Origin: Prevotella lacticifex
Lineage (GTDB): Bacteria; Bacteroidota; Bacteroidia; Bacteroidales; Bacteroidaceae
Reading direction: 5' to 3'
Assembly (NCBI RefSeq): GCF_019973375.1
Contig: NZ_BPTV01000001.1
Coordinates: forward strand, 2,373,104 to 2,437,103
Length of the DNA stretch: 64,000 nucleotides
Shown: piece by piece, positions 43,483 through 54,366 of the stretch
Layout: the number at the start of each line of letters is the position of its first letter
How positions within the stretch are numbered: the stretch's first letter is position 1
Notes under the pieces: model-generated
The model's database searches: none
What the model was told of the DNA's origin: nothing
Seen by the model: only the letters and a program-made list of their open reading frames with translations
Program-made: the position numbers and the translations under genes

Positions 43483-43553
43483 TGGGATATGGTGTAATGG
43501 TAACACTACAGATTCTGGTCCTGTCATTCCTGGTTCGAATCCGGGTATCCCAA
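43483..43553 (+). tRNA. tRNA-Gln (anticodon CTG)
   Basis: A 71-nt cloverleaf. Acceptor TGGGATA pairs with TATCCCA, D arm GTGT...ACAC, anticodon arm ACAGA-TTCTGGT-CCTGT with anticodon CTG. T arm is CCTGG-TTCGAAT-CCGGG, discriminator A. CCA is not encoded. Pair 31-39 is A-C, a mismatch at the anticodon stem edge, and one T-stem pair is G-C/T-G wobble-like; otherwise normal. Confidence 0.95.
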
Positions 43554-43560
43554 CTGATTT

Positions 43561-43598
43561 AAAAGCCAAACATCTGATTATCAGATGCTTGGCTTTTT
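43561..43598 (+). terminator. terminator after tRNA-Gln
   Basis: AAAAGCCAA with TTGGCTTTT and inner CATCTGA with TCAGATG, ending in a T run. Directly after the tRNA. Confidence 0.88.
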
Positions 43599-43634
43599 AC
43601 TTTATACATTTTTGGCGTATTTTTGGCGTGATAA

Positions 43635-44342
43635 TCATTCTATAATCAGAATTTTCCTATATTTCAACGACCATGAAAAAATAAATTTTTGAAATGGAGA
43701 ATTACGCCCTAATCGGCTATTTGAAAAGTTCTCATAGCATAGGCCCTTCTTTTGCGTGCCATTGACGGACAGAGATGTTGACTCCAACTGGTCGTTATGC
43801 TTGTTGTAGCTATTGACCGTTTCTGTAGTATAGCCCCGTCCATTCTTGAACAGAAGCTGCGACACATTCTCCTGTTTGCCGGTAAATGTGTATCTGGTGT
43901 TCTGCTTTAGAAAGGAGTTCTCTGACAAGACACGATAGCTTTGAATGACTTGTCCCTTTGCATTATAGAAGAAGACATCAAGGAGTGGAGAGTCATCGCT
44001 TGCAACAGAGTATGTACCGGTAACAAGTCCCGTCGTATTCGTACCACTGGCTATCTGCTGTTGCCAATCAAGCCCATGGTTTGTTTTTGCCAAGAGGAGA
44101 CTAAGGTAATCGTAATTGTCATAGTAGTTGACAACTTCGAGCTTCGGATTCTCCAATCGGAGGTCATGCCCGATGATGTATCCCGTTCCGAAGAATCCGC
44201 TCTGTCTTGTGTCAAGAGTCGTGCGTGTCACATTCCTTCCGCGGTTGCATGACGTGCATGTGCCCTCGACGGCAACCCGTGACAGCTTGTCGTAAAGGTA
44301 GAAGCGGTATAGACCTTTTTCTCTCATGCGTCCGTCCTTCAT
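43635..44342 (-). pseudogene. displaced RHS core fragment
   Basis: A 235-codon fragment homologous to the middle of the RHS protein encoded at 44913. MKDGRMREKGLYRFYLYDKL matches MQDGRMRMKGLYRFYLYDNL, and ENPKLEVVNYYDNY matches ENPKLEIVNYYDNY. The match starts just upstream of the ATG: the bases covering the last codons of the immunity gene read NDNRLIY in this frame, against TADRLIF in the RHS core. After about 190 residues similarity fades, and the end is AT-rich with a Lys/Ile-rich tail. It has no signal peptide and no tip of RHS core WDRVDP type. It is probably a leftover of an older RHS gene after cassette replacement; whether it is ever translated is unknown. Confidence 0.8.
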
Positions 44343-44347
44343 ATAAA

Positions 44348-44926
44348 TCAGTCTGTTGTCATTGAATCAAGGAAATCGTTATTTCCTTTTATAATAAGGG
44401 ATTTTAAATAAAGAAACTTCTCATTTAAAGATCTTGAATCTCCTTTGTAATCACGTAATAATAATGAAGGAAAATAAACAATTATGTTTATATATTTATT
44501 TCGTTTAAATTTATTATTCAAATCTTCTAAAGATAAAATGTTTTCTTTGTCATATGGATCATATATATAGCATACTTTAAAACACGTTTTTTTTTGATTC
44601 AAATATTTTTTTAGTTTTAATAATTCTTTTTGTGATATGACCTTATTAGCAATTTTTCCTCGATTAATTAGTGATATGGAATGAATTCTTCCCCTTGAAT
44701 TTATTTCGCAGGTAAAAGGTATATTAAAATAATATGGGCTATCATGATATTGATAAATATCTAATAACTTAAAGACCACAGAATCCCCTAAACTCTCAAA
44801 GAGACCTTTGGTTAATTTTTTACTATTATAAATATTACAGGTGTCTCCTATACCTAAGACAGAATTCTGAGCAGAGGCAAACAATGCCATAAAAAGCACA
44901 AGAAGGAATATGTTAATTCTTTTCAT
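44348..44926 (-). CDS. candidate immunity protein for the RHS toxin
   Basis: A 192-residue exported protein (194 if started at 44932). It starts MKRINIFLLVLFMALFASAQ, a signal peptide, so it acts outside the cytoplasm. The body is Lys/Asn/Ile-rich and low in GC, matching the RHS tip and unlike the RHS core. Its start overlaps the RHS stop by 14 bases, the tight coupling expected of a toxin-immunity pair. I do not recognise a family. The signal peptide suggests protection in the periplasm or at the surface, consistent with a protease-like toxin. Role inferred from position, composition and the general plan of polymorphic toxin loci. Confidence 0.6.
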   Translation of the reverse strand: MKRINIFLLVLFMALFASAQNSVLGIGDTCNIYNSKKLTKGLFESLGDSVVFKLLDIYQYHDSPYYFNIPFTCEINSRGRIHSISLINRGKIANKVISQKELLKLKKYLNQKKTCFKVCYIYDPYDKENILSLEDLNNKFKRNKYINIIVYFPSLLLRDYKGDSRSLNEKFLYLKSLIIKGNNDFLDSMTTD

Positions 44927-47900
44927 AAGCATATTTTAATATGGTCTGTAATGAATATGGAATAGAAGTTATCAGGCTTCTGTAATACTCGTTACCATAG
45001 CTATTTCTAATATTGTAATTTGCCCATTTTATACATGAACTATTATAATCTTTAATAAAAGCCGGTGATTGCGAGTTTTCGGGGGTAATAGGAATATCCC
45101 CATTACCATAGGTAAACTTTTCTAATCTGGTTTTAAATTCATCCATGCCGTTGATATTGCCGAATCCCACTCCTTCCAATCCAACACAAATATCAAAGAC
45201 TTTGGCCTCAAATTCTCTGTTAAAATCTTTGTTTTGGTAATAATTAATGTTAATTTGTTGAAATGCGTGGAAAAATTCTTCAGTAGGTACAGATGAAGGC
45301 ATATCAGAACTATTACGATTAAAATTAATAGTCCAAGAATCTGGATAGAAGCAGCCATCAATATCATTTCCTTCATTGGATAGATTATCAACGTATTCTA
45401 CTTTTATTACTTTTTCACTGCTTTGAAGGGTTTGATATAATTTATCGAATAACTTACTACTATTTCTTAATCCTTCTATCATGGTATTATACGATAATAA
45501 ATCATTGCCAAACAAACCAGTAGTGTCTATTACTTCGCCATTTAAATCATAAAAACATGTAGGATTATTTGCACATACTGCATAAGTACTGATGTTATAA
45601 TATTTCTCAGCCAACGGGTCGACTCTATCCCACACGCCGAGGAAGGAGTAGTTCTGACGGGCGCCATGGTCGTAGGTGTTGAGGCCGTGGGTAAGGTCGA
45701 GCTCTTTACCTGTGTACTTGTACTTCTGGAAGTCGGGGTTCTTGCCAGCATCGGCATAAACGGCACCGAATGGATAATAGTGGACAGACTGAACAATGGA
45801 GTCGTTCGAGTCTACAACTACACGGTTGTTGCCAAGGTGGTCGGTAAGATAGAAGTAAAGACCTTCACCAGTTCCTCCTAAGAATGAATGTCCGTTGCCA
45901 GCGTAGACAGGATAGGAATAGAAGCCGCCTGCGAAAAGATATTTCGACGGCTTGCCGTTCTCGAAAACGAAATTCTCAATATAGTCGGTGGAATCCTTGG
46001 ACAGCACGTCCTTCGGTATGATTGTCGGATTGGAGAATCCTGTACCGGAGTTTACAGCTACCGATTGCACTTTCGGCATTGGCTTCAATGGCGAAACAGT
46101 TGTATTGTAAAGTGATTTTATGTGGATTGTGCGCAACTTCTCGCCAGTGGCTGTATAGACGTATTCTGTCTTACTGTTGTCAGAGAAAGTTATGCACACA
46201 GGATTGTTGCGAAGGTCGTATTCAATGTTGGTTATTCCACGGTTACTGTCCTTTATGAGCGCGCCGTTCTGGTCATAAAGATACTCGACCTCCCCCTGCC
46301 CCTCCGAAGGAGGGGTGACCTTGCGGAAGTCAAAGCTGCCTGCACGGAGGACCGGAGCGGCTTTCTCTTCGATTGATGCCAGTTGGTTGCCATTTAAAGT
46401 AATGTTAAGGCTGTCAATAGCTCCGTAATGTCCATCCTGCTTTAATCCATTTCGGATAATTCCCGTTATCGCTCCGTTCGCTGTATAGCCGGTGATGCGC
46501 TCGTTATAGCGGTTCGCATTAGTGCTGAATGCAGAACCTTCACCGTAAAGTGCATTCGTAATGCGGTTCAGCTTGTCGTATGTAAACTTGTAGCCACGGA
46601 GTTTCGTCTCGTCACCATTCTTCCATTGCTGCGTGCTGATGTTGCCATTATAATATGGTGTTCCCTGATTGCCGGCATTATATGTCAGGTGTTCCTCGAA
46701 GTTCTTGCCAATGATGTCGGTTATCCAGCCGTGGAGGTTGTAAGTGTAAACCTCTCCCTGGTTTTCTCCGAAGGGGAGGGAGTTTGAATTGCCATGACTA
46801 CTATGATTGACGGAATTGATTCTGCCGAGATCGTCGTAGATTATCGACCTGATGTTCTGGGAAGGACTGCCATCTAGAGACAATGCGACTGCCGACAGCT
46901 TGTTGTTGTGTGGATTGTAAGAGTTGTGCGTGAGTGACTTGTAACTCCTGTCCCCCTTGTAAAGCACTTGCGTAGTGCTGTCGGTGTTGCCAGTAAATGT
47001 ATATGAGTTCTTCGTTACGAGCAAGGCATCGCCGGGCAAAGTGCGGTGAGATTCCGTCACATGCCCCTTTATATCGTAATATAAGGCACTTAGGAGTAAG
47101 TCATCCCTGTTTGTCGATGTGATACTTCCCGTAGAAAGACCGGATGCATTAGTGGCACTTGTCGGGCAAGAGGATCTCTTCAATGCCACATTGTCCTTGA
47201 AAACCGACAGGTTAAGGAATTCGTAATTGTCATAGTAATTGACAATCTCCAACTTAGGATTCTCCAAGTTAAGGTTATGGTCAAACGTATAACCCGTTCC
47301 AAGGAATCCCTCATTCGAGGCGTTGAAGGTGGTATGTGCTACAGCACCGCCACGATTGCATGACGAGCATGTTCCCTCCACGACAACCCTTGAGAGGTTG
47401 TCGTAAAGGTAGAATCGGTATAGGCCTTTCATTCTCATTCGTCCGTCCTGCATAAAGATGAGCCTGTCGGCAGTGTCGTACCAGTACTGGATGTACTCGC
47501 ACTGGGGCAGAATCTTCTTCGCTACATTGCCCCTGTTATCATAACGATATTCATAGCCATATATTGCCTTATGCTGGTCATTTTGATATTCGGGCGAGAG
47601 GACGAAGCGCAATTGCCCGAGGTCATTGTAGACAAAGTATGTATCGTTGTTGCCATCATCACTGCCTCTGCGTTCGAGGACTTTCCTGCCAAGTTTGTCA
47701 GTATATACAGTAAGCGAATGCCCGTCCTCGTCGGTGGTCGTTTCTCCGAGCAGCTGGCATGGCTCATAATAACCGGACTTGACAAGATGGTTCTGACCGT
47801 CCATCGGTGCGGTATAGAGCCGGACATCATTCATGCCGTTGGTGACATATTCCTTCGTTACGGCCTTGCCTGCGGCATGCCAAGCCTCGCCCGGAGTTGT

Positions 47901-50900
47901 GGTATTTGTTACCCTGTCGAGTGCGTCGTAAGAGTTGTCGGAATAGGTGTAGCTCTCTTCTTTGTAGGTGTTTTCGGAAAGGCTCGCCAAATCATTATCG
48001 CTGTTCCACACTTGATGTGGCGTCGCCTTATCAACGACCGGCAGCCATTGCCTTCCTGTCCGCTCAAATCCTTGATAGCCTTGTACAGTTGAGACATACA
48101 GTCCATTGCCGCCAATGCCGTTGGAAGACGTTTGTATGGGTCTGCCCAGTCCGTCGAAATATTGCAACGAGTTGATTCTCAAACTGGCGTCAGCATCCAG
48201 GATGTTACCGGTCTGTATGTGATTGTCGCCGTTGCCGTATTTGTACTTATAGTCCGCCGTCAGTTTGCCATCGTTATCGTAAGCTGCTGACAGGCGGTTC
48301 TGCCCGTCATACTGAAACGTGGCCTTGCAGCCGTTTGGGGCCATTGTCCAGCTGATTCCTACGCCAGGCTGATAGAGGTAGCATGTCATTACCACCTGCC
48401 TGCCAGACGATTGCAGTTTGTCACTCACTGACAGGAGGTCTGAGGCATTCGGGGTCTTCTGCGACAGGACTTCCAGCACGCTACTGCCGACGACACCTGC
48501 AACCTCAGCATAGGTCATGCCATGTATCTCCGCTACAGGGTAGCTGTGATCGTATGACCATAACCATGCCGCCTTTTCCGTTCCGTCCTTGACGAAGCTG
48601 CGCGGATTGAGCCTGCTGTCGTAATCACTGTATACGAGCCTTTTCGAAAGTGTTCCTCCATTCAATGCCGTATATACTTCTGACGGAAAGTAGAGTCTTC
48701 CGTCATTCCTAACATTGGTGAATCCATAGGTTGTCCTTATCCGCCTGAGCTCGCTTCCGTTGCAGCTAAGTGCCTGTTCCACAACGGGAGATACGACATT
48801 GTCGGCGGTCATATTCTTGAAGACATCGTCGTCATCAAAGTCGCACGGATATTTGTATGTCGTCGCAAAGGACTTTCCATTCTCGCTTGAGTCGTATTTG
48901 TCAGTGCAGACCTTGTAGTTCCTTTCGTTATAGGCATACTCGTGCGTTACTGATACCTTGCCGTTATTCTCGTAGCTTGTCGTTACACTCTTCGCCAGGC
49001 GGTTCCATATGCGATAGTAGGAATAAACAACCGAGTAATATCTGGCGAATCCGTCACTTGTCCGATGCTGCATGAGACAGTGGTCGTTTATGGAGCGGTC
49101 CACAAGGTGTATGTTGCATGTAAACGGCTTCTTCTCATGCATATACGTATTCACCGTCGCCTGCAGGGTGTCGTTGCCGTTAATGACAGTCTGCGTAAGC
49201 AACTCGCCGTTGCCGTAGTCTTTAAATTGATATAGTCCTACCAATACCCTTTCCGCCGGTTTGTTGCCGAACGTGCTGACGGTCGTCTTCAGTAATCTGC
49301 CATTACCGTCATATTCTTTCCTTGCTACACGGTCATAACCTACCAGTCCCGGTGTAATGCCGCTTGAAAAGCCTCCTACGAAGGCAAGGGACGAATTGGA
49401 AAGCGTATACCCTCCGTACAGGTCGTCCCTGTCCTCACGTGTAAAACCGCCATGCAAGAATGTAGCCTTCTGCCAGAACTCCCCAAAACATTCTGGGATG
49501 AGAAGCCGCCCGCCTTTGTAATCAAATGTAGTTTTCGATGCCGGGACACTGTCATTTGCTGACGCATAGCTCGATATGGATGCAATCCTCAGTCCGCCGC
49601 CTGTAGAACAGTCCCAGGTTAATCCCTGATTGTCCTTGTCGACTATGTCATCACGTGAAAATGCAGCTGTCAGACTTGCAGATGCGGAACACGAGCTGTT
49701 TTCCCCGCATGAGTCGGGAAGGGCGGCGGTCATAGTGTACCATCCCTTCCTCAGGAACAGAATTATATCCTTACTAACAGACGATGCCTTGTCCAGGCTT
49801 TCGTTCATACCAACAGCATTGTCCGGGGTGTAGGTGTACGATGTACCGTCCACATGCGAGTGAATGCTAACCGAGGCGCCGTTATCCTGTAGCGACCACA
49901 GGTCGTGCTTTGTGTCGCCGCTGAATGATATGTTGAACCTGTAATGTCCCGTGTAGTCCAGCCGCACCAGAATTACACACGGAGGAAAATGCGGTTCCGT
50001 CGAATTACGGTCTATGACAAATGCTCCGCCCGGGTTGTCCGCCGAGTCGGTTACCGTATATGCGTAGATGGAACCGGAAAGTCCGGTCTTTTCTATCTCA
50101 TGAGATTCGGGGAATATCTGTCCCGATACCAGGCCGAAGGTGTTCGGCTCGTAATTGAATGTCGTCCTGCCGCCTGTGGGGTAATTGATGGATGAAAGGG
50201 TTGCGGCCTGCATGAGCCGCCCGTCGGCAAAGCGGTTGGCACCTTTGAAACCGCTGACATTGTCGTTGCGCTGTGTTATGTTGCCGCACATGTACATCAT
50301 AGGGCCGTCTGGAATGGAAGTGCGGTATCCGGTGATGTGCTCGTTCTTGTTCCTGTTCTCACTGCCGTTGTAGTATCCCCAGAAATCCGTGGCGAAGGAT
50401 GTCTTCAACGGAAGGTATGTGCCGTTGTAAGCAAACGACGTGGTTTGTACGTTATCCGGGGCGAGCGTGTTCCTTATCTCGTCAAGGCGCAGGCGCAGCC
50501 TCTTGCTGTCGCTGACAGAATAAAGGTTCTCGCTCTGCGCCATGCCTATTGTACCTGTCTGGGTATAGTCGCCGCCGATGTTGCTGCCGATGAAATAGGA
50601 ATAGGCGAAATCCCACGATGCCAGCTGTCGTCCAGTGATGTTGTCCTTTGCGGTGAACGAGTCCAGCCTTGCCGCGCCGGGCATGTCCTGCCTTTTGTCC
50701 CGGCTGCATTTGAAGTCTACAGTTATGTTGTTGGTAGATATACGCTTGAGGTATGACTTGTCTATGGAGAAGGCGCCTGCAATATAATCACGCAAATAAC
50801 CCGTTTGTAGTGAGGAAGTGCCATATTCAAGACCTTCTTCCGAGGCGTTATTTGGATGTGTAATGAACATATACTGCTCGCTGAGGTGTCCGATAAGTGG

Positions 50901-51839
50901 GATACGCAGAAAGTCTGTGTATTCAAAATACGCCTTGTTGCCCTTGGGGGATGTAAGCTCTGTAAGGTTCCACGCAGAAGGATAATCCTTTCCAGGCTCA
51001 TGGGTGATTTCTTTATTGGAGAAATAATATGTAAAGCCTTCCAAATCCTTGATGGTGAATGCAGTCAGCTCGTTGATGTTGATGTCGTGGCTCCTGCCGT
51101 GGACGGTACCGTTCTTGATATTCTCTGCCCTTATGGTGAATCTCTCAGGAACTTTTCCGATAGGCTCGAAACTTGACGTAAACGGGTTGTAGAAGAACAT
51201 GAAATGCTTGCCCATCACGCTGGCGGAAAAGATGTCGCGCTCGCCAAGACCACCCTTCAAGTCTTCCAACACCTCCGTATAATAATTAGTATAGCTGTAG
51301 GTGTAGCCGTCAGGTATATAGCCATTTGTGAAGTCAAAGCAGGTGGAATCGCCGTGAATGTTGATTTTTGAATTGAACAACTTTGAATAGTCTTCCCAGC
51401 TTCCATTACCATTGTTGTAATCGACCTGCCCCGAAGGGATGAGCGTTATGCAGCCACCGGCATTGAGATTCCAACCCAGTCCGACCCATGTCGCCTCCTG
51501 GGCGACCTTTATGCCGGACGCATCATATGTAACGGCAATCGGAATGTCTATGTCTCCGTCCTTAAGCTCGTAAAGCGGGATGCTGATGTCGGGTACGCCC
51601 GTGTATTCGTCCGTCTGGTATTGCCCGTATCTGAGGAATGCAGCCGCTTCAGGCGAACGGTACGGGAACTTCGGCATCTGTACGCCGTACGGGTCATCGG
51701 CACTTGCGGCACGCCTTGCCGCCACAGGCAGAGAATCCTGTGAGAGGCTGTCAGTATTTATGACGGCTCCCGCATTATCAGCAAGGCTGACATTGCAGAA
51801 TGAGGTTAGCAATATGATCAGGAGTAATATGTTCTTCAT
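44913..51839 (-). CDS. RHS-repeat polymorphic toxin candidate
   Basis: A 2308-residue secreted RHS/YD-repeat protein. Signal peptide MKNILLLIILLTSFCNVSLA. N-terminal region typical of Bacteroidetes RHS proteins (DISIPLYELKDGDIDIPIAV, GLGWNLNAGG). Many YD-type repeats follow (YDGQNRLSAAYDNDG, YTYSDNSYDALDRVTNT). The core end is DHLGNNRVVVDSNDSIVQS, YTGKELDLTHGLNTYDHGAR and LGVWDRVDPLAEKYYNISTY. After NGEVIDT comes a variable tip of about 206 residues (2103-2308), AT-rich, with VPTEEFFHAFQQ (Glu2187-Gln2194) and EFEAK 20 residues on: a HExxH-like layout where the first His is Glu. The start overlaps the preceding gene by ATGA. No PAAR or T6SS part is visible. Confidence 0.88.
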   Translation of the reverse strand: MKNILLLIILLTSFCNVSLADNAGAVINTDSLSQDSLPVAARRAASADDPYGVQMPKFPYRSPEAAAFLRYGQYQTDEYTGVPDISIPLYELKDGDIDIPIAVTYDASGIKVAQEATWVGLGWNLNAGGCITLIPSGQVDYNNGNGSWEDYSKLFNSKINIHGDSTCFDFTNGYIPDGYTYSYTNYYTEVLEDLKGGLGERDIFSASVMGKHFMFFYNPFTSSFEPIGKVPERFTIRAENIKNGTVHGRSHDININELTAFTIKDLEGFTYYFSNKEITHEPGKDYPSAWNLTELTSPKGNKAYFEYTDFLRIPLIGHLSEQYMFITHPNNASEEGLEYGTSSLQTGYLRDYIAGAFSIDKSYLKRISTNNITVDFKCSRDKRQDMPGAARLDSFTAKDNITGRQLASWDFAYSYFIGSNIGGDYTQTGTIGMAQSENLYSVSDSKRLRLRLDEIRNTLAPDNVQTTSFAYNGTYLPLKTSFATDFWGYYNGSENRNKNEHITGYRTSIPDGPMMYMCGNITQRNDNVSGFKGANRFADGRLMQAATLSSINYPTGGRTTFNYEPNTFGLVSGQIFPESHEIEKTGLSGSIYAYTVTDSADNPGGAFVIDRNSTEPHFPPCVILVRLDYTGHYRFNISFSGDTKHDLWSLQDNGASVSIHSHVDGTSYTYTPDNAVGMNESLDKASSVSKDIILFLRKGWYTMTAALPDSCGENSSCSASASLTAAFSRDDIVDKDNQGLTWDCSTGGGLRIASISSYASANDSVPASKTTFDYKGGRLLIPECFGEFWQKATFLHGGFTREDRDDLYGGYTLSNSSLAFVGGFSSGITPGLVGYDRVARKEYDGNGRLLKTTVSTFGNKPAERVLVGLYQFKDYGNGELLTQTVINGNDTLQATVNTYMHEKKPFTCNIHLVDRSINDHCLMQHRTSDGFARYYSVVYSYYRIWNRLAKSVTTSYENNGKVSVTHEYAYNERNYKVCTDKYDSSENGKSFATTYKYPCDFDDDDVFKNMTADNVVSPVVEQALSCNGSELRRIRTTYGFTNVRNDGRLYFPSEVYTALNGGTLSKRLVYSDYDSRLNPRSFVKDGTEKAAWLWSYDHSYPVAEIHGMTYAEVAGVVGSSVLEVLSQKTPNASDLLSVSDKLQSSGRQVVMTCYLYQPGVGISWTMAPNGCKATFQYDGQNRLSAAYDNDGKLTADYKYKYGNGDNHIQTGNILDADASLRINSLQYFDGLGRPIQTSSNGIGGNGLYVSTVQGYQGFERTGRQWLPVVDKATPHQVWNSDNDLASLSENTYKEESYTYSDNSYDALDRVTNTTTPGEAWHAAGKAVTKEYVTNGMNDVRLYTAPMDGQNHLVKSGYYEPCQLLGETTTDEDGHSLTVYTDKLGRKVLERRGSDDGNNDTYFVYNDLGQLRFVLSPEYQNDQHKAIYGYEYRYDNRGNVAKKILPQCEYIQYWYDTADRLIFMQDGRMRMKGLYRFYLYDNLSRVVVEGTCSSCNRGGAVAHTTFNASNEGFLGTGYTFDHNLNLENPKLEIVNYYDNYEFLNLSVFKDNVALKRSSCPTSATNASGLSTGSITSTNRDDLLLSALYYDIKGHVTESHRTLPGDALLVTKNSYTFTGNTDSTTQVLYKGDRSYKSLTHNSYNPHNNKLSAVALSLDGSPSQNIRSIIYDDLGRINSVNHSSHGNSNSLPFGENQGEVYTYNLHGWITDIIGKNFEEHLTYNAGNQGTPYYNGNISTQQWKNGDETKLRGYKFTYDKLNRITNALYGEGSAFSTNANRYNERITGYTANGAITGIIRNGLKQDGHYGAIDSLNITLNGNQLASIEEKAAPVLRAGSFDFRKVTPPSEGQGEVEYLYDQNGALIKDSNRGITNIEYDLRNNPVCITFSDNSKTEYVYTATGEKLRTIHIKSLYNTTVSPLKPMPKVQSVAVNSGTGFSNPTIIPKDVLSKDSTDYIENFVFENGKPSKYLFAGGFYSYPVYAGNGHSFLGGTGEGLYFYLTDHLGNNRVVVDSNDSIVQSVHYYPFGAVYADAGKNPDFQKYKYTGKELDLTHGLNTYDHGARQNYSFLGVWDRVDPLAEKYYNISTYAVCANNPTCFYDLNGEVIDTTGLFGNDLLSYNTMIEGLRNSSKLFDKLYQTLQSSEKVIKVEYVDNLSNEGNDIDGCFYPDSWTINFNRNSSDMPSSVPTEEFFHAFQQININYYQNKDFNREFEAKVFDICVGLEGVGFGNINGMDEFKTRLEKFTYGNGDIPITPENSQSPAFIKDYNSSCIKWANYNIRNSYGNEYYRSLITSIPYSLQTILKYAYEKN

Positions 51840-52882
51840 AGTACCGTTATTTTCTCGTTATAAACTTTGCCGTTGACATTAACATATAGGATGTACTTGC
51901 CACGGCGAAGGCCGTTGCAGTCTATGCAGAGCGAATAACCGTCGCCTTTATCGTTGTTCTGCCGACATTGCCTGTAGACCACGCCCATAACGTCTGAGAC
52001 AAGTGCCGAAACATCGGCGCTCCCGTCGAGGGAGTAATTAACCGTTATCTGATTGCCGTTCTGCGACACGGTGTAATGGATTATGTCATCATTTGCCTTG
52101 GCCTTCTCTGCAATGGCTATGGAATCTTTTCGGCGGATGTCCTCATTGCAGGAGTCCGCCTGAAACCTCTGGCTGTCCGGCGGCATGCCCCATGCCGACC
52201 GTGTCGTGCCGATGGGAGCCGCATCGTCATAGCTCGTGCTTGTAACGGTGGTGAAAAGGGGATAGCGGTAGCCGCGTGCATACCAGTCGTAACGTTCCTC
52301 GATGATTTGCTTGAGCCGTGCCGAGTCTAGTGCGGCACTGTCTATGTCCATACAAACCGAATAAGACATCCGGGTGTAAACGCGGAGGACGTTCTGAATC
52401 GTGTCCTCGCCAAGGACAATGCTTCCTGCGGCATCCGCCATGACCATCGACATACCCTGCTCGCGGAATGGATGGTCGCCGCAATAGACACCATATCCAC
52501 TAAAAGGAACAGATATAGAATCGCCGTAGGCGAATGGATACTTTATGGACAATATCGGATGGTCATAAGTTATCTTGCTAAGTGGATTTTCTACGTGTAC
52601 GATGAATAACGTATCACCGCTTAAATCATAGTATGTTATATCGTTACTGGTAAGTACCAAATGTCTGTCCAAAGAATCCTTTTGCAACCAGATATTAAGG
52701 TTTTGCCCTGTTGTCATCAAATCGGAAAAATCCCAAGTCGAATTACTGCTACTTTTCTCGGTATAGAAATATGGCATTGGCATAACGGACAATACATCTG
52801 AATCACACAAGAGATTCTCCGCCTTACTTAGAAAGCATCCCTGTGCATTTGATGACAGCGTTATAGCGAATAAAGCGATTAA
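51836..52882 (-). pseudogene. secreted protein with sorting-like tail, cut by an ISAs1 element
   Basis: The main part of a gene split by the insertion at 52883. The frame reads LLIALFAITLSSNAQGC from the insertion point, which is a signal peptide without a start codon. Joined to the seven codons MNRIKSL on the far side (54548-54568) it makes a protein of 355 residues in frame. A TTG at 52810 gives 324 residues with no signal, probably not a real start. Beta-rich, with a DUF3244-like or T9SS-like end (GLRRGKYILYVNVNGKVYNEKITVL). The stop overlaps the RHS start, so the loss may also lower RHS translation. Role unknown; the operon suggests a helper for RHS display. Confidence 0.85.
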
Positions 52883-53028
52883 AAGGGCTCTTTCATTTAA
52901 CTCGGCATAGAAGACAATATGTCACAATGTAATCCATTTAAATGAATGTGGCGGCAGGCATAAACGCCCGAAGGCGGTTTTTCAACCGCCAAGCTCTTAA
53001 TACCTTCTGTCATAATTTTTATACTTTT

Positions 53029-53205: not shown

Positions 53206-54366
53206 TTGCTGATCCGAGATTTGTTAAATTTTATCAACTCAGTACCAGATTATCGGAGGATGAACAAAGGCAACTGTAAGCACAAGTTGTCCGACATGCT
53301 TCTACTGGTTATTTTGGCCAGGGTATGCGGCTGCGAGACCCGCAAAGACATTGTGACCTTTGGAACGGTCCATTTGAGCTACTTGCAAGACCGCCTTGGC
53401 ATTCTTGCTAAGGGATGTCCGTCAGAACCCACACTTTGCAGGATGGAAGATGGGATTGACGACGTTACTTTGGCTTCTTTGGTTTCGGCATTGTCACGAA
53501 AATACATGTCGGAGCATGATGGAACAAACAGACGGCATATCGCAATTGACGGCAAGTTCATGCGGGGTACGGAAATTGGCGACGGACGCTCTCCTGATGT
53601 TGTGACTGCTTTCAGCGTGACCGACCGGTTGCCGCTTGACACTGAAATGTGTGAGGTGAAAAGCAATGAGATAAAGGCTGTGCCCAAAATCATAGAGCGG
53701 GCTGACTACATGAATGGATGCGTTATAACTGCGGATGCCATGTCGTGCCAAAGTTCTATCATCAAAGGCATCGTCGGGAAGGGAGCTGACTATCTTATTG
53801 CGCTGAAAGCCAACCAGAAAGCAGCAAGATGGTCGGTAGAGGACGCTGTGCCTACGCTGCATCCTAACGACGAATGGAAGACGGAGTGGGAACTTGCCCA
53901 CGGGAGGCTGTACCAACGCCGATGCCGTGTATATTCAGACATATCCGGTATCAAGGCGCTTGAAAAATTCCTCAATGTCAAGGCTGTGATTGCCATAGAC
54001 ACGCATACGATTGAAAAGAAAAGCGGAACGGAACAAAAACAGACGAGGTACTATATAACCAGTTTGGAAGAAAGGGCACAGACTTTGGATCGAATCAGCC
54101 GCATGCACTGGGGAATCGAGAACAATCTCCATTGGACGCTGGATGCAAGAATGCGCCAGGACCGCACAAAGAGAAAAGAAACAAAGTCGGCCAGAAACTT
54201 GGACTCGATCCAGAAGCTTGTTTATATCATCTACACCATAGCCTCCAAAAAGCACCTGCCAGAGACCATCAGAAAGAGGAAAGAACTCTTTAAAGTCAAG
54301 TTCTCAGCCATTGCATCTTACGCCAAGAACAGCTTGGCCTATGCTATTTCTCTTCTCAGTCTGTAG
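53206..54366 (+). CDS. ISAs1-family (H-repeat type) transposase
   Basis: A 386-residue DDE transposase of the ISAs1 family, which includes the H-repeat proteins of E. coli rhs elements. N-terminal FINSVPDYRRMNKGNCKHKL and ILARVCGCETRKDI are typical. Catalytic Asp in HIAIDGKFMRG, a second Asp in VITADAMSCQ, the ALKANQK box, and Glu in RMHWGIENNLHWTLD. Complete frame. The start is TTG at 53206; no in-frame ATG lies near, and the start follows a 35-bp hairpin arm by two bases. Confidence 0.93.
   Translation: MLIRDLLNFINSVPDYRRMNKGNCKHKLSDMLLLVILARVCGCETRKDIVTFGTVHLSYLQDRLGILAKGCPSEPTLCRMEDGIDDVTLASLVSALSRKYMSEHDGTNRRHIAIDGKFMRGTEIGDGRSPDVVTAFSVTDRLPLDTEMCEVKSNEIKAVPKIIERADYMNGCVITADAMSCQSSIIKGIVGKGADYLIALKANQKAARWSVEDAVPTLHPNDEWKTEWELAHGRLYQRRCRVYSDISGIKALEKFLNVKAVIAIDTHTIEKKSGTEQKQTRYYITSLEERAQTLDRISRMHWGIENNLHWTLDARMRQDRTKRKETKSARNLDSIQKLVYIIYTIASKKHLPETIRKRKELFKVKFSAIASYAKNSLAYAISLLSL

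What the first reader, a model, noticed from the sequence alone, without database searches (positions are those of the whole stretch)
44348..51839. RHS toxin candidate with a zincin-like tip lacking the first His, plus exported immunity candidate
The RHS core is GC-balanced and ends at a clear WDRVDP..NNP border. The last 206 residues and the overlapping next gene are AT-rich. The tip has TEEFFHAFQQ and, 20 residues on, EFEAK, which fits the HExxH...E layout of metallopeptidases but with Glu in place of the first His. The partner protein has a signal peptide, so immunity would act in the periplasm. This may be a new tip/immunity pair.
Basis: partly seen in the sequence, partly recalled or inferred. 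Interest (0 to 1): 0.85.

Follow-up and report, generated by a model that had tools for sequence, protein, structure and literature searches.

The report
Toxin tip with Glu-for-His metal site
A large secreted bacterial protein ends in a protease-like, probably toxic domain whose usual metal-gripping histidine is a glutamate, and in the relatives read here this position is one of those two letters, so it looks like a rebuilt metal site rather than a dead one, next to a gene that probably protects the maker.

Summary
In detail: a 2308-aa RHS protein (44913-51839, -) ends in an AT-rich 206-aa tip with EEFFHAFQ and REFEAK, overlapped by an AT-rich, signal-peptide gene. The missing His is not a local defect. 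The tip belongs to a Bacteroidota family without a database name, carried by RHS proteins and by lipoproteins. In 50 profile-found frames the first motif position was readable in 48: His 31, Glu 17, nothing else. In 84 aligned tips the base Glu, second His, Gln and ExE are unchanged, and Glu at position 1 goes with Lys/Arg two residues past ExE (51 of 54, against 2 of 30 His tips). Glu/His probably switched more than once (AU p=0.019). AlphaFold (pLDDT 94) gives a zincin-like fold; PDB matches are mostly zincins but weak (Z 7.5). Most tips are followed by an exported gene (31 of 35 and 35 of 38 tips), often DUF5043 away from this window. Best reading: an envelope-acting metallopeptidase-like toxin with exported immunity, in which Glu replaces His as metal ligand, perhaps shifting metal preference as EEXXH does in ZIP8/ZIP14. 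Toxicity, metal binding, catalysis and immunity are inferred, not shown.

The parts
44913..51839 (-). RHS carrier protein P0001, 2308 aa, with its own signal-peptide-like N-terminus
   Evidence: DUF6443 E 2.2e-18; Rhs_assc_core 35.0 bits against cut-off 32.5
47844..48203 (-). DUF6443 domain, residues 1213-1332
45537..45779 (-). RHS repeat-associated core domain, residues 2021-2101, end of the constant part
44916..45533 (-). tip domain, residues 2103-2308, zincin-like fold, GC 31%
   Evidence: AlphaFold m0ba806194eac, pLDDT 94.4, pTM 0.92; VIA top Z 7.5; GC
45258..45281 (-). EEFFHAFQ motif, residues 2187-2194 (E2187 in the place of the first His, E2188 base, H2191, Q2194)
45201..45215 (-). EFEAK, residues 2209-2213: conserved E2209 and E2211 (third-ligand helix) and K2213, which goes with Glu at 2187
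   Evidence: one fragment with Asp at the E2209 place
44348..44932 (-). exported partner, candidate immunity protein P0002, 194 aa, GC 26%
   Evidence: model
44913..44932 (-). 20-nt overlap of tip gene and partner gene
43635..44342 (-). relic RHS core fragment P0003 directly after the partner, about 50% identical to residues 1458-1663 of P0001
51836..52810 (-). gene upstream on the same strand and overlapping the RHS start, weak T9SS C-terminal sorting tail (below cut-off)

Best explanation
An RHS-carried polymorphic toxin and its immunity gene. The carrier enters the Sec pathway. Its C-terminal tip is a gluzincin-like domain that acts outside the cytoplasm, in the periplasm or at the surface of a competing bacterium. 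In this subtype Glu2187 replaces the first metal-binding His and, with H2191 and a Glu of the E2209/E2211 pair, still holds a divalent metal; K2213 offsets the added negative charge. E2188 remains the base. The exported partner binds and blocks the tip in the producer's own periplasm. Shown: the sequence pattern, its conservation and the gene pairing. Strongly suggested: the fold. Inferred: export route, metal, catalysis, toxicity, immunity, site of action.
For: Fold: pLDDT 94.4; 45 of 50 listed PDB rows are zincin peptidases, though 35 of them come from two toxin types. Constraint: in 84 tips E86, H89, Q92, E107 and E109 (tip numbering) are 84 of 84, in Glu and His types alike. In 37 profile-found tips E, H, Q and E.E are invariant. 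Position 1 is H or E in the 48 readable of 50 profile-found frames. A dead site would drift to other letters. Coupling: Lys/Arg at 111 in 16 of 17 Glu and 2 of 29 His tips among those not chosen by the EE pattern. Pairing: exported next gene; 19 of 39 partners match DUF5043. Cassette history: GC drop and RHS relic; tandem tips or partners in some loci. Precedents: VgrG2b, a periplasmic zincin toxin with exported immunity (PMC6899460, passages); ZIP8/ZIP14 EEXXH tied to Mn transport (PMC10457451, PMC5661630, passages).
Against: No experiment. No convincing sequence match and no Foldseek match at E<=0.001 to a known peptidase; Z 7.5 is below the tool's own caution line of 8. Lenart 2013 treats substituted zincins, H1-to-E among them, as inactive (PMC3650047, passages). 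A Lys beside the site could also stand in for the metal. The coupling rests on few independent events: 2 on supported branches, 5 on the best tree, so the tree-corrected test cannot reach significance. Weaker relatives depart: Gln is Glu in L165, and no E.E was read in L112, L165 and L196; the Glu-type fragment L149 has Asp for the first Glu of E.E. The window's partner has no family match and 11-26% identity to the partners aligned with it. DUF5043 genes also occur without a tip: 14 of 38.
Confidence: 0.5

Rival explanations
1. Toxin with a metal-free site: in the Glu subtype the Lys side chain takes the place of the metal ion between Glu2187 and the third-ligand Glu. The tip harms by binding, or by a non-peptidase reaction, and the partner is still its immunity protein.
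For: Lys/Arg at 111 is by far the strongest column associated with Glu at position 1 (51 of 54 against 2 of 30; 16 of 17 against 2 of 29). First-ligand substitutions are regarded as inactive in Lenart 2013.
Against: H89, E86, Q92, E107 and E109 are as fixed in Glu tips as in His tips, which a lost metal site would not require. Three of 54 Glu tips have Trp or Ala at 111.
Confidence: 0.22
2. Not an antibacterial toxin but an exported or surface protease (nutrient or host-glycoprotein degrading), the small exported partner being its chaperone, propeptide-like inhibitor or anchor.
For: Carrier and partner both look exported; some carriers have lipoprotein-type starts (12 of 38 by a crude lipobox test). 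No killing data.
Against: Variable carriers, tandem arrays, duplicated partners and a relic RHS tail are typical of polymorphic toxin loci. DUF5043 genes also occur away from tips, as orphan immunity genes would (14 of 38). Low GC of the cassette alone.
Confidence: 0.18
3. Decayed pseudoenzyme: the window tip is a degenerate zincin without function.
For: The first His is lost; relic RHS sequence lies next door.
Against: The same Glu is kept across tips of many Bacteroidota families, including 17 rows not chosen by the EE pattern; the other motif residues are intact; the reading frame is open.
Confidence: 0.05

Closest known systems
VgrG2b C-terminal domain / Tpe1-Tpi1 (T6SS metallopeptidase effector and periplasmic immunity; PMC6899460, passages read)
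   Same: gluzincin toxin tip, acts in the periplasm, immunity gene downstream and placed in the envelope; here fold, gene order and exported partner are alike, action untested
   Different: HExxH, DUF4157-type, T6SS carriers in proteobacteria; here EExxH, RHS or lipoprotein carriers in Bacteroidota, no DUF4157 among the Pfam matches shown
Tox-MPTase1-5 and PVC-metallopeptidase of polymorphic toxins (PMC3482391, passages read)
   Same: zincin-like tips, often on RHS proteins; HExxHxxQ-E of the PVC type resembles [HE]ExxHxxQ...E here
   Different: given there as HExxH (HEELH for MPTase5) in the passages read; Tox-MPTase4 matches only 2 of 38 tips, best E 0.17; no immunity family is listed for Tox-MPTase1-5 in the table passage read
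Fab1/Rfab1 of Bacteroides fragilis (PMC8406203, passages read)
   Same: about 50-kDa Bacteroides protein whose C-terminal 28-kDa part is the secreted antibacterial toxin; immunity gene directly downstream; no recognised domains
Pfam DUF5043 (PF16446)
   Same: 19 of 39 partners of related tips match it at E<=0.01, best 6.3e-29; a solved chain, 4qe0_A, matches the partner profile at E 6.4e-35
   Different: the window's partner does not match DUF5043
ZIP8/ZIP14 EEXXH metal transporters (PMC10457451, PMC5661630, passages read)
   Same: natural Glu for His at the first place of HEXXH, linked to manganese and broader metal use
   Different: membrane transporter, unrelated fold; analogy only

Membership tests
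RHS polymorphic toxin system | long RHS/YD core ending in a conserved core domain, then a variable C-terminal tip | tested here: met
   DUF6443, Rhs_assc_core 35.0 bits over cut-off 32.5, tip of different GC; related tips sit on different carriers. PF05593 RHS_repeat found nothing in the genome
RHS polymorphic toxin system | immunity gene directly downstream of the tip | tested here: inconclusive
   overlapping gene present; a close next gene follows 33 of 35 and 36 of 38 related tips and looks exported in 31 and 35; protection itself not testable here
Zincin metallopeptidase (clan MA) | HExxH motif | tested here: not met
   window tip has EEFFH; 17 of 48 readable profile-found relatives also have Glu, 31 have His
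Zincin metallopeptidase (clan MA) | zincin fold with motif helix and glutamate helix | tested here: inconclusive
   pLDDT 94.4 with helices 81-94 and 106-122; VIA best Z 7.5 over 143 residues, rmsd 4.4; Foldseek no E<=0.001
Zincin metallopeptidase (clan MA) | bound metal and peptidase activity | not testable with these tools
   needs protein
Tox-MPTase4 (PF15640) | Pfam match over cut-off | tested here: not met
   window tip no match; 2 of 38 tips at best E 0.17
DUF5043 (PF16446), as immunity family | Pfam match of the window partner | tested here: not met
   only a short profile-profile link, Prob 70, E 4e-5 over 43 columns
TonB/TolA C-terminal domain | fold and Pfam TonB_C match of the window partner | tested here: inconclusive
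   12 of 14 VIA rows with Z>=2 are TolA/TonB/HasB domains but best Z is 4.6; no Pfam TonB_C match for the window partner; TonB_C does match the next genes of L063 (1.9e-11) and L086 (7e-6)
Fab1/Rfab1 | sequence similarity to Fab1 | not tested
   sequence not held; paper passages only

The most novel reading that the evidence does not exclude
A toxin family has repeatedly swapped the first metal ligand of HExxH between His and Glu, together with a Lys two residues past the third-ligand motif. This would give a second, natural active-site type (EExxH...ExEAK) that works with another metal (Mn or Fe) or with Lys in the metal's place. The exported DUF5043/TonB-CTD-like proteins would be its dedicated immunity family, possibly mimicking an envelope target of TolA/TonB shape.
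Probability: 0.3. Interest if true: 0.85.

Novelty: new variant of a known kind. Interest (0 to 1): 0.62.

Why it matters
Substituted zincins have been treated as inactive (Lenart 2013, passages). This family gives natural His and Glu versions of one active site with the other motif residues kept, so the question whether EExxH is a working metal site can be tested with unchanged natural proteins. It would also give a function, immunity, to DUF5043, which no paper in the library searched names, and a candidate frame for antibacterial toxins of gut and environmental Bacteroidota, perhaps Fab1.

Tried and rejected
Single-sequence searches with the tip found little: only the window's own genome among 299 of the genus; no relative in viral contigs or phages; one plasmid hit at E 7, noise. 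PDB phmmer hits to designed PPR repeats (E down to 3.5e-16) are sums of many weak helix matches, hardly any passing on its own, and were rejected, as were weak Pfam and NCBIfam hits (RNA_binding 0.087; PRK14555 0.014).

Selection effects. The motif scan fixed EE, F, H, A, [FY] and Q, so invariance of those letters in A1 is by construction, and my layout filter asked for an E.E pattern. The claims therefore rest on profile-found tips. That profile (A3, 12 Glu and 4 His rows) is not neutral. Rows left out: L020, L075 and one truncated L032 tip (A1); 10 of 38 partner references (A2); L159, truncated (A8); partners of L184, L190 and L191 (A7); one near-identical tip (84-row tree). Hits under 28 bits are not in A8 or the tree. 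In one search, 4 of 50 frames showed no motif by regex; L167 and L168 read His in the alignment, L172 holds only the C-terminal part, the second L185 frame only the N-terminal part. Of the extra hits fetched, L148 holds only the C-terminal part, L151 (22 bits) has His, and L149 (33 bits, a 126-aa frame) has Glu but Asp at the 107 place; my regex had missed L149, so it is not in the 84 rows. Hits listed without a locus were not all read.

TonB_C as homologue of the partners: profile comparison not significant. Tree-corrected test of the Glu-Lys coupling: too few independent events. DUF5043 in 34 genomes of one genus: none, uninformative. The first signal-peptide count used a lenient predictor (52 of 124 controls positive) and tried more start codons for partners than for controls; replaced.
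Full report
What is there. The minus-strand ORF 44913-51839 encodes 2308 aa. It begins MKNILLLIILLTSFCNVSLA, a signal-peptide-like segment. It carries DUF6443 (E 2.2e-18) and an RHS core domain at 2021-2101 (35.0 bits, cut-off 32.5), and ends after WDRVDP (2070) and NNP (2091) in a 206-aa tip. GC falls from 49.6% in the core to 31.1% in the tip and 25.8% in the next gene. The next gene, 44348-44932, overlaps by 20 nt and encodes 194 aa with a signal-peptide-like start. Directly after its stop lies a relic RHS piece, about 50% identical to residues 1458-1663 of the carrier. This is the usual layout of an exchanged tip cassette (recalled knowledge of RHS loci).

A family, not an oddity. The tip itself is rare: a single-sequence search found it only in its own genome among 299 of the same genus. 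An exact DNA scan for EE.FHA[FY]Q in one genome per species gave 92 stretches. 40 of these 92 loci hold 41 tips of the same layout; with the window and one overlapping locus the script counted 43 tips in 42 loci. The rest are short frames or unrelated proteins. The named records with such tips that I could see are Bacteroidota; L023 is unplaced. Carriers are RHS proteins, or proteins of about 400-640 aa, several with lipoprotein-type starts and Gly-rich linkers (12 of 38 in the later set by a crude lipobox test). Pfam, NCBIfam, PADLOC and the PDB gave no convincing match for the tips.

Glu and His alternate. Because that scan fixed the Glu, I searched with a profile holding 12 Glu and 4 His tips (A3): 150 own-genus genomes, the 35 genomes of known loci, and 150, 201, 48 and 120 genomes of four other groups. 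In the 50 frames read (new loci), position 1 is readable in 48: His in 31 and Glu in 17, no other residue (recounted). Three of the 17 Glu frames were tips already known. Four further tips (L143, L145, L146, L147, one of them the same as L198) and the fragment L149 have Glu, and L151 has His. The search of 394 phylum genomes with the all-Glu profile A1 likewise found His relatives. In 37 profile-found tips the invariant columns are E, H, Q and E.E (A8). In 84 tips (54 Glu, 30 His) E86, H89, Q92, E107 and E109 are 84 of 84. Exceptions lie outside that set: L165 (26 bits) has Glu for the Gln, no E.E was read in L112, L165 and L196, and L149 has Asp at 107, which hints that E109 is the metal ligand. 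On a tree built with position 1 masked, the state changes 5 times, and the tree that keeps the His tips together is rejected (AU p 0.0186). Support is modest: 17 of 81 inner branches are starred, and starred branches alone force only one change.

A coupled residue. Of the alignment columns tested, position 111 (K2213 here) is most strongly tied to the Glu/His state: Lys/Arg in 51 of 54 Glu tips and 2 of 30 His tips. Among tips not chosen by the pattern it is 16 of 17 and 2 of 29 (Fisher 2.5e-9). The tree offers only 2 independent contrasts on supported branches, or 5 on the best tree; in the pairings drawn none went the other way, but the sign test cannot reach significance. Position 111 is four residues after E107 and two after E109. 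In thermolysin the residue four after the Glu ligand contacts the first His (recalled), so contact of K2213 with E2187 is plausible but was not measured; no coordinates were available.

Fold. AlphaFold with 38 tips gives pLDDT 94.4 and pTM 0.92, with motif helix 81-94 and glutamate helix 106-122 after three strands. Foldseek has no hit at E<=0.001; its best rows (E 0.39) are mycobacterial regulators, with ArdC, selecase and lethal factor among the next. The second look lists 50 rows: 25 of the lethal-factor catalytic region (best Z 7.5, 143 aligned, rmsd 4.4), 10 of neurotoxin light chains, 10 other zincin peptidases (Spartan, Wss1, IRAP, deuterolysin, selecase and a putative Zn peptidase; some recognised from memory), 2 of Certhrax and 3 HECT domains. 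So 45 of 50 are zincin peptidases, but the rows are redundant, and by the tool's note a Z under 8 may be a common arrangement. The fold is likely, not proven.

The partner. Of 35 distinct tips with 300 nt or more downstream, 33 have a next same-strand ORF starting between -44 and +93 nt, and 31 of the 33 look exported, against 41 of 100 size-matched control ORFs from the same loci (crude predictor; Fisher 3.6e-8). In the profile-found set it is 36 of 38 and 35 of 36. Most partners share a G-x-I type hairpin followed by a helix. 19 of 39 aligned partners match DUF5043 at E<=0.01, 3 of 28 in the first set, and a solved chain, 4qe0_A, matches their profile at 6.4e-35. The reverse test: of 38 DUF5043 hits in 20 of 150 genomes, 24 lie within about 1.1 kb downstream of a tip (12 read by script, 12 by comparing coordinates) and 14 do not, 3 of those with under 1 kb of upstream sequence. 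In another genus no DUF5043 was found in 34 genomes. The window's own partner is not DUF5043; it links to the others only through the hairpin region (Prob 76 and 70, E 2.4e-5 and 4e-5 for one comparison). Its model (pLDDT 71.7, tail below 50) has no Foldseek match at E<=0.001; in the second look 12 of 14 rows with Z>=2 are TolA/TonB/HasB-type domains, best Z 4.6. TonB_C is matched outright by the next genes of L063 and L086, but profile comparison of the partner sets with these two is not significant.

How it most likely works. Carrier and partner both look exported, so the tip probably acts in the envelope or outside. VgrG2b is the tested precedent: a gluzincin toxin harmful in the periplasm and not in the cytoplasm, inactivated by alanine at H, E or H of the motif, and relieved by a periplasmic immunity protein (PMC6899460, passages). 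The Glu state has a precedent in another fold: ZIP8 and ZIP14 have EEXXH, tied to manganese and broader metal use, and putting HEXXH in ZIP8 abolishes Mn transport according to the passage read (PMC10457451; PMC5661630). Lenart 2013 reports that first-His-to-Glu occurs about twice as often as expected in substituted zincins, often in M2, and regards substituted zincins as inactive with unknown role (PMC3650047, passages). Against a dead site here stands the kept rest of the motif in the Glu tips. Whether Glu plus Lys still holds a metal, or Lys replaces it, is the open point.

Known or new. Peptidase tips on RHS proteins are known (Tox-MPTase1-5, PMC3482391, passages). The EExxH...ExEAK subtype, its alternation with HExxH, the coupled Lys and the DUF5043-type exported partner were not found in print: 'EExxH' with 'metallopeptidase' gave 0 papers; 'EEXXH' gave 3, two read in passages and one by title, all on ZIP transporters; 'DUF5043' 0; 'DUF6443' 0; further searches, of which I saw listings beyond the passages named. 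The library holds only open-licence papers. Fab1/Rfab1 of B. fragilis (PMC8406203, passages) has a similar outward layout, and its possible membership is an untested lead.

Noticed in passing
window 51836-52950: The gene upstream of the RHS gene seems to have a frame break near its start: the signal-peptide-like stretch and the nearest ATG seen are in different frames. It may be a broken gene or an assembly error.
   Followed up: partly
window 43483-43635: A tRNA-Gln gene lies just beyond the relic RHS fragment, between it and the RsfS and FtsH-like genes; a possible integration site.
   Followed up: no
window 53206-54366: DDE transposase with DDE_Tnp_1_assoc domain near the start of the RHS operon.
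   Followed up: no
L143 (G1081:C11:9000-11500): An ORF in which a partner-like stretch is fused to the front of a second tip (EELYHAYQ), close to a complete tip-partner pair: looks like recombination within a tandem array.
   Followed up: partly
L239, L252, L236, L251: Two or more DUF5043 genes in a row near a tip, as in extra or orphan immunity genes.
   Followed up: partly
L233, L237, L238, L240, L242-L250: DUF5043 genes without a tip in the upstream sequence held, several beside unrelated genes.
   Followed up: no
L003, L004, L007, L008, L009: Different families of exported or membrane-anchored proteins with HE[ML]FHA[YF]Q and a later E[GS].A.Y-like motif, not RHS tips.
   Followed up: no
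L149 (G1103:C19:1-1800): A 126-aa tip fragment in the Prevotella conceptionensis genome with EELFHVFQ but Asp at the first Glu of E.E; it may be decaying, or tell which Glu is the ligand.
   Followed up: partly
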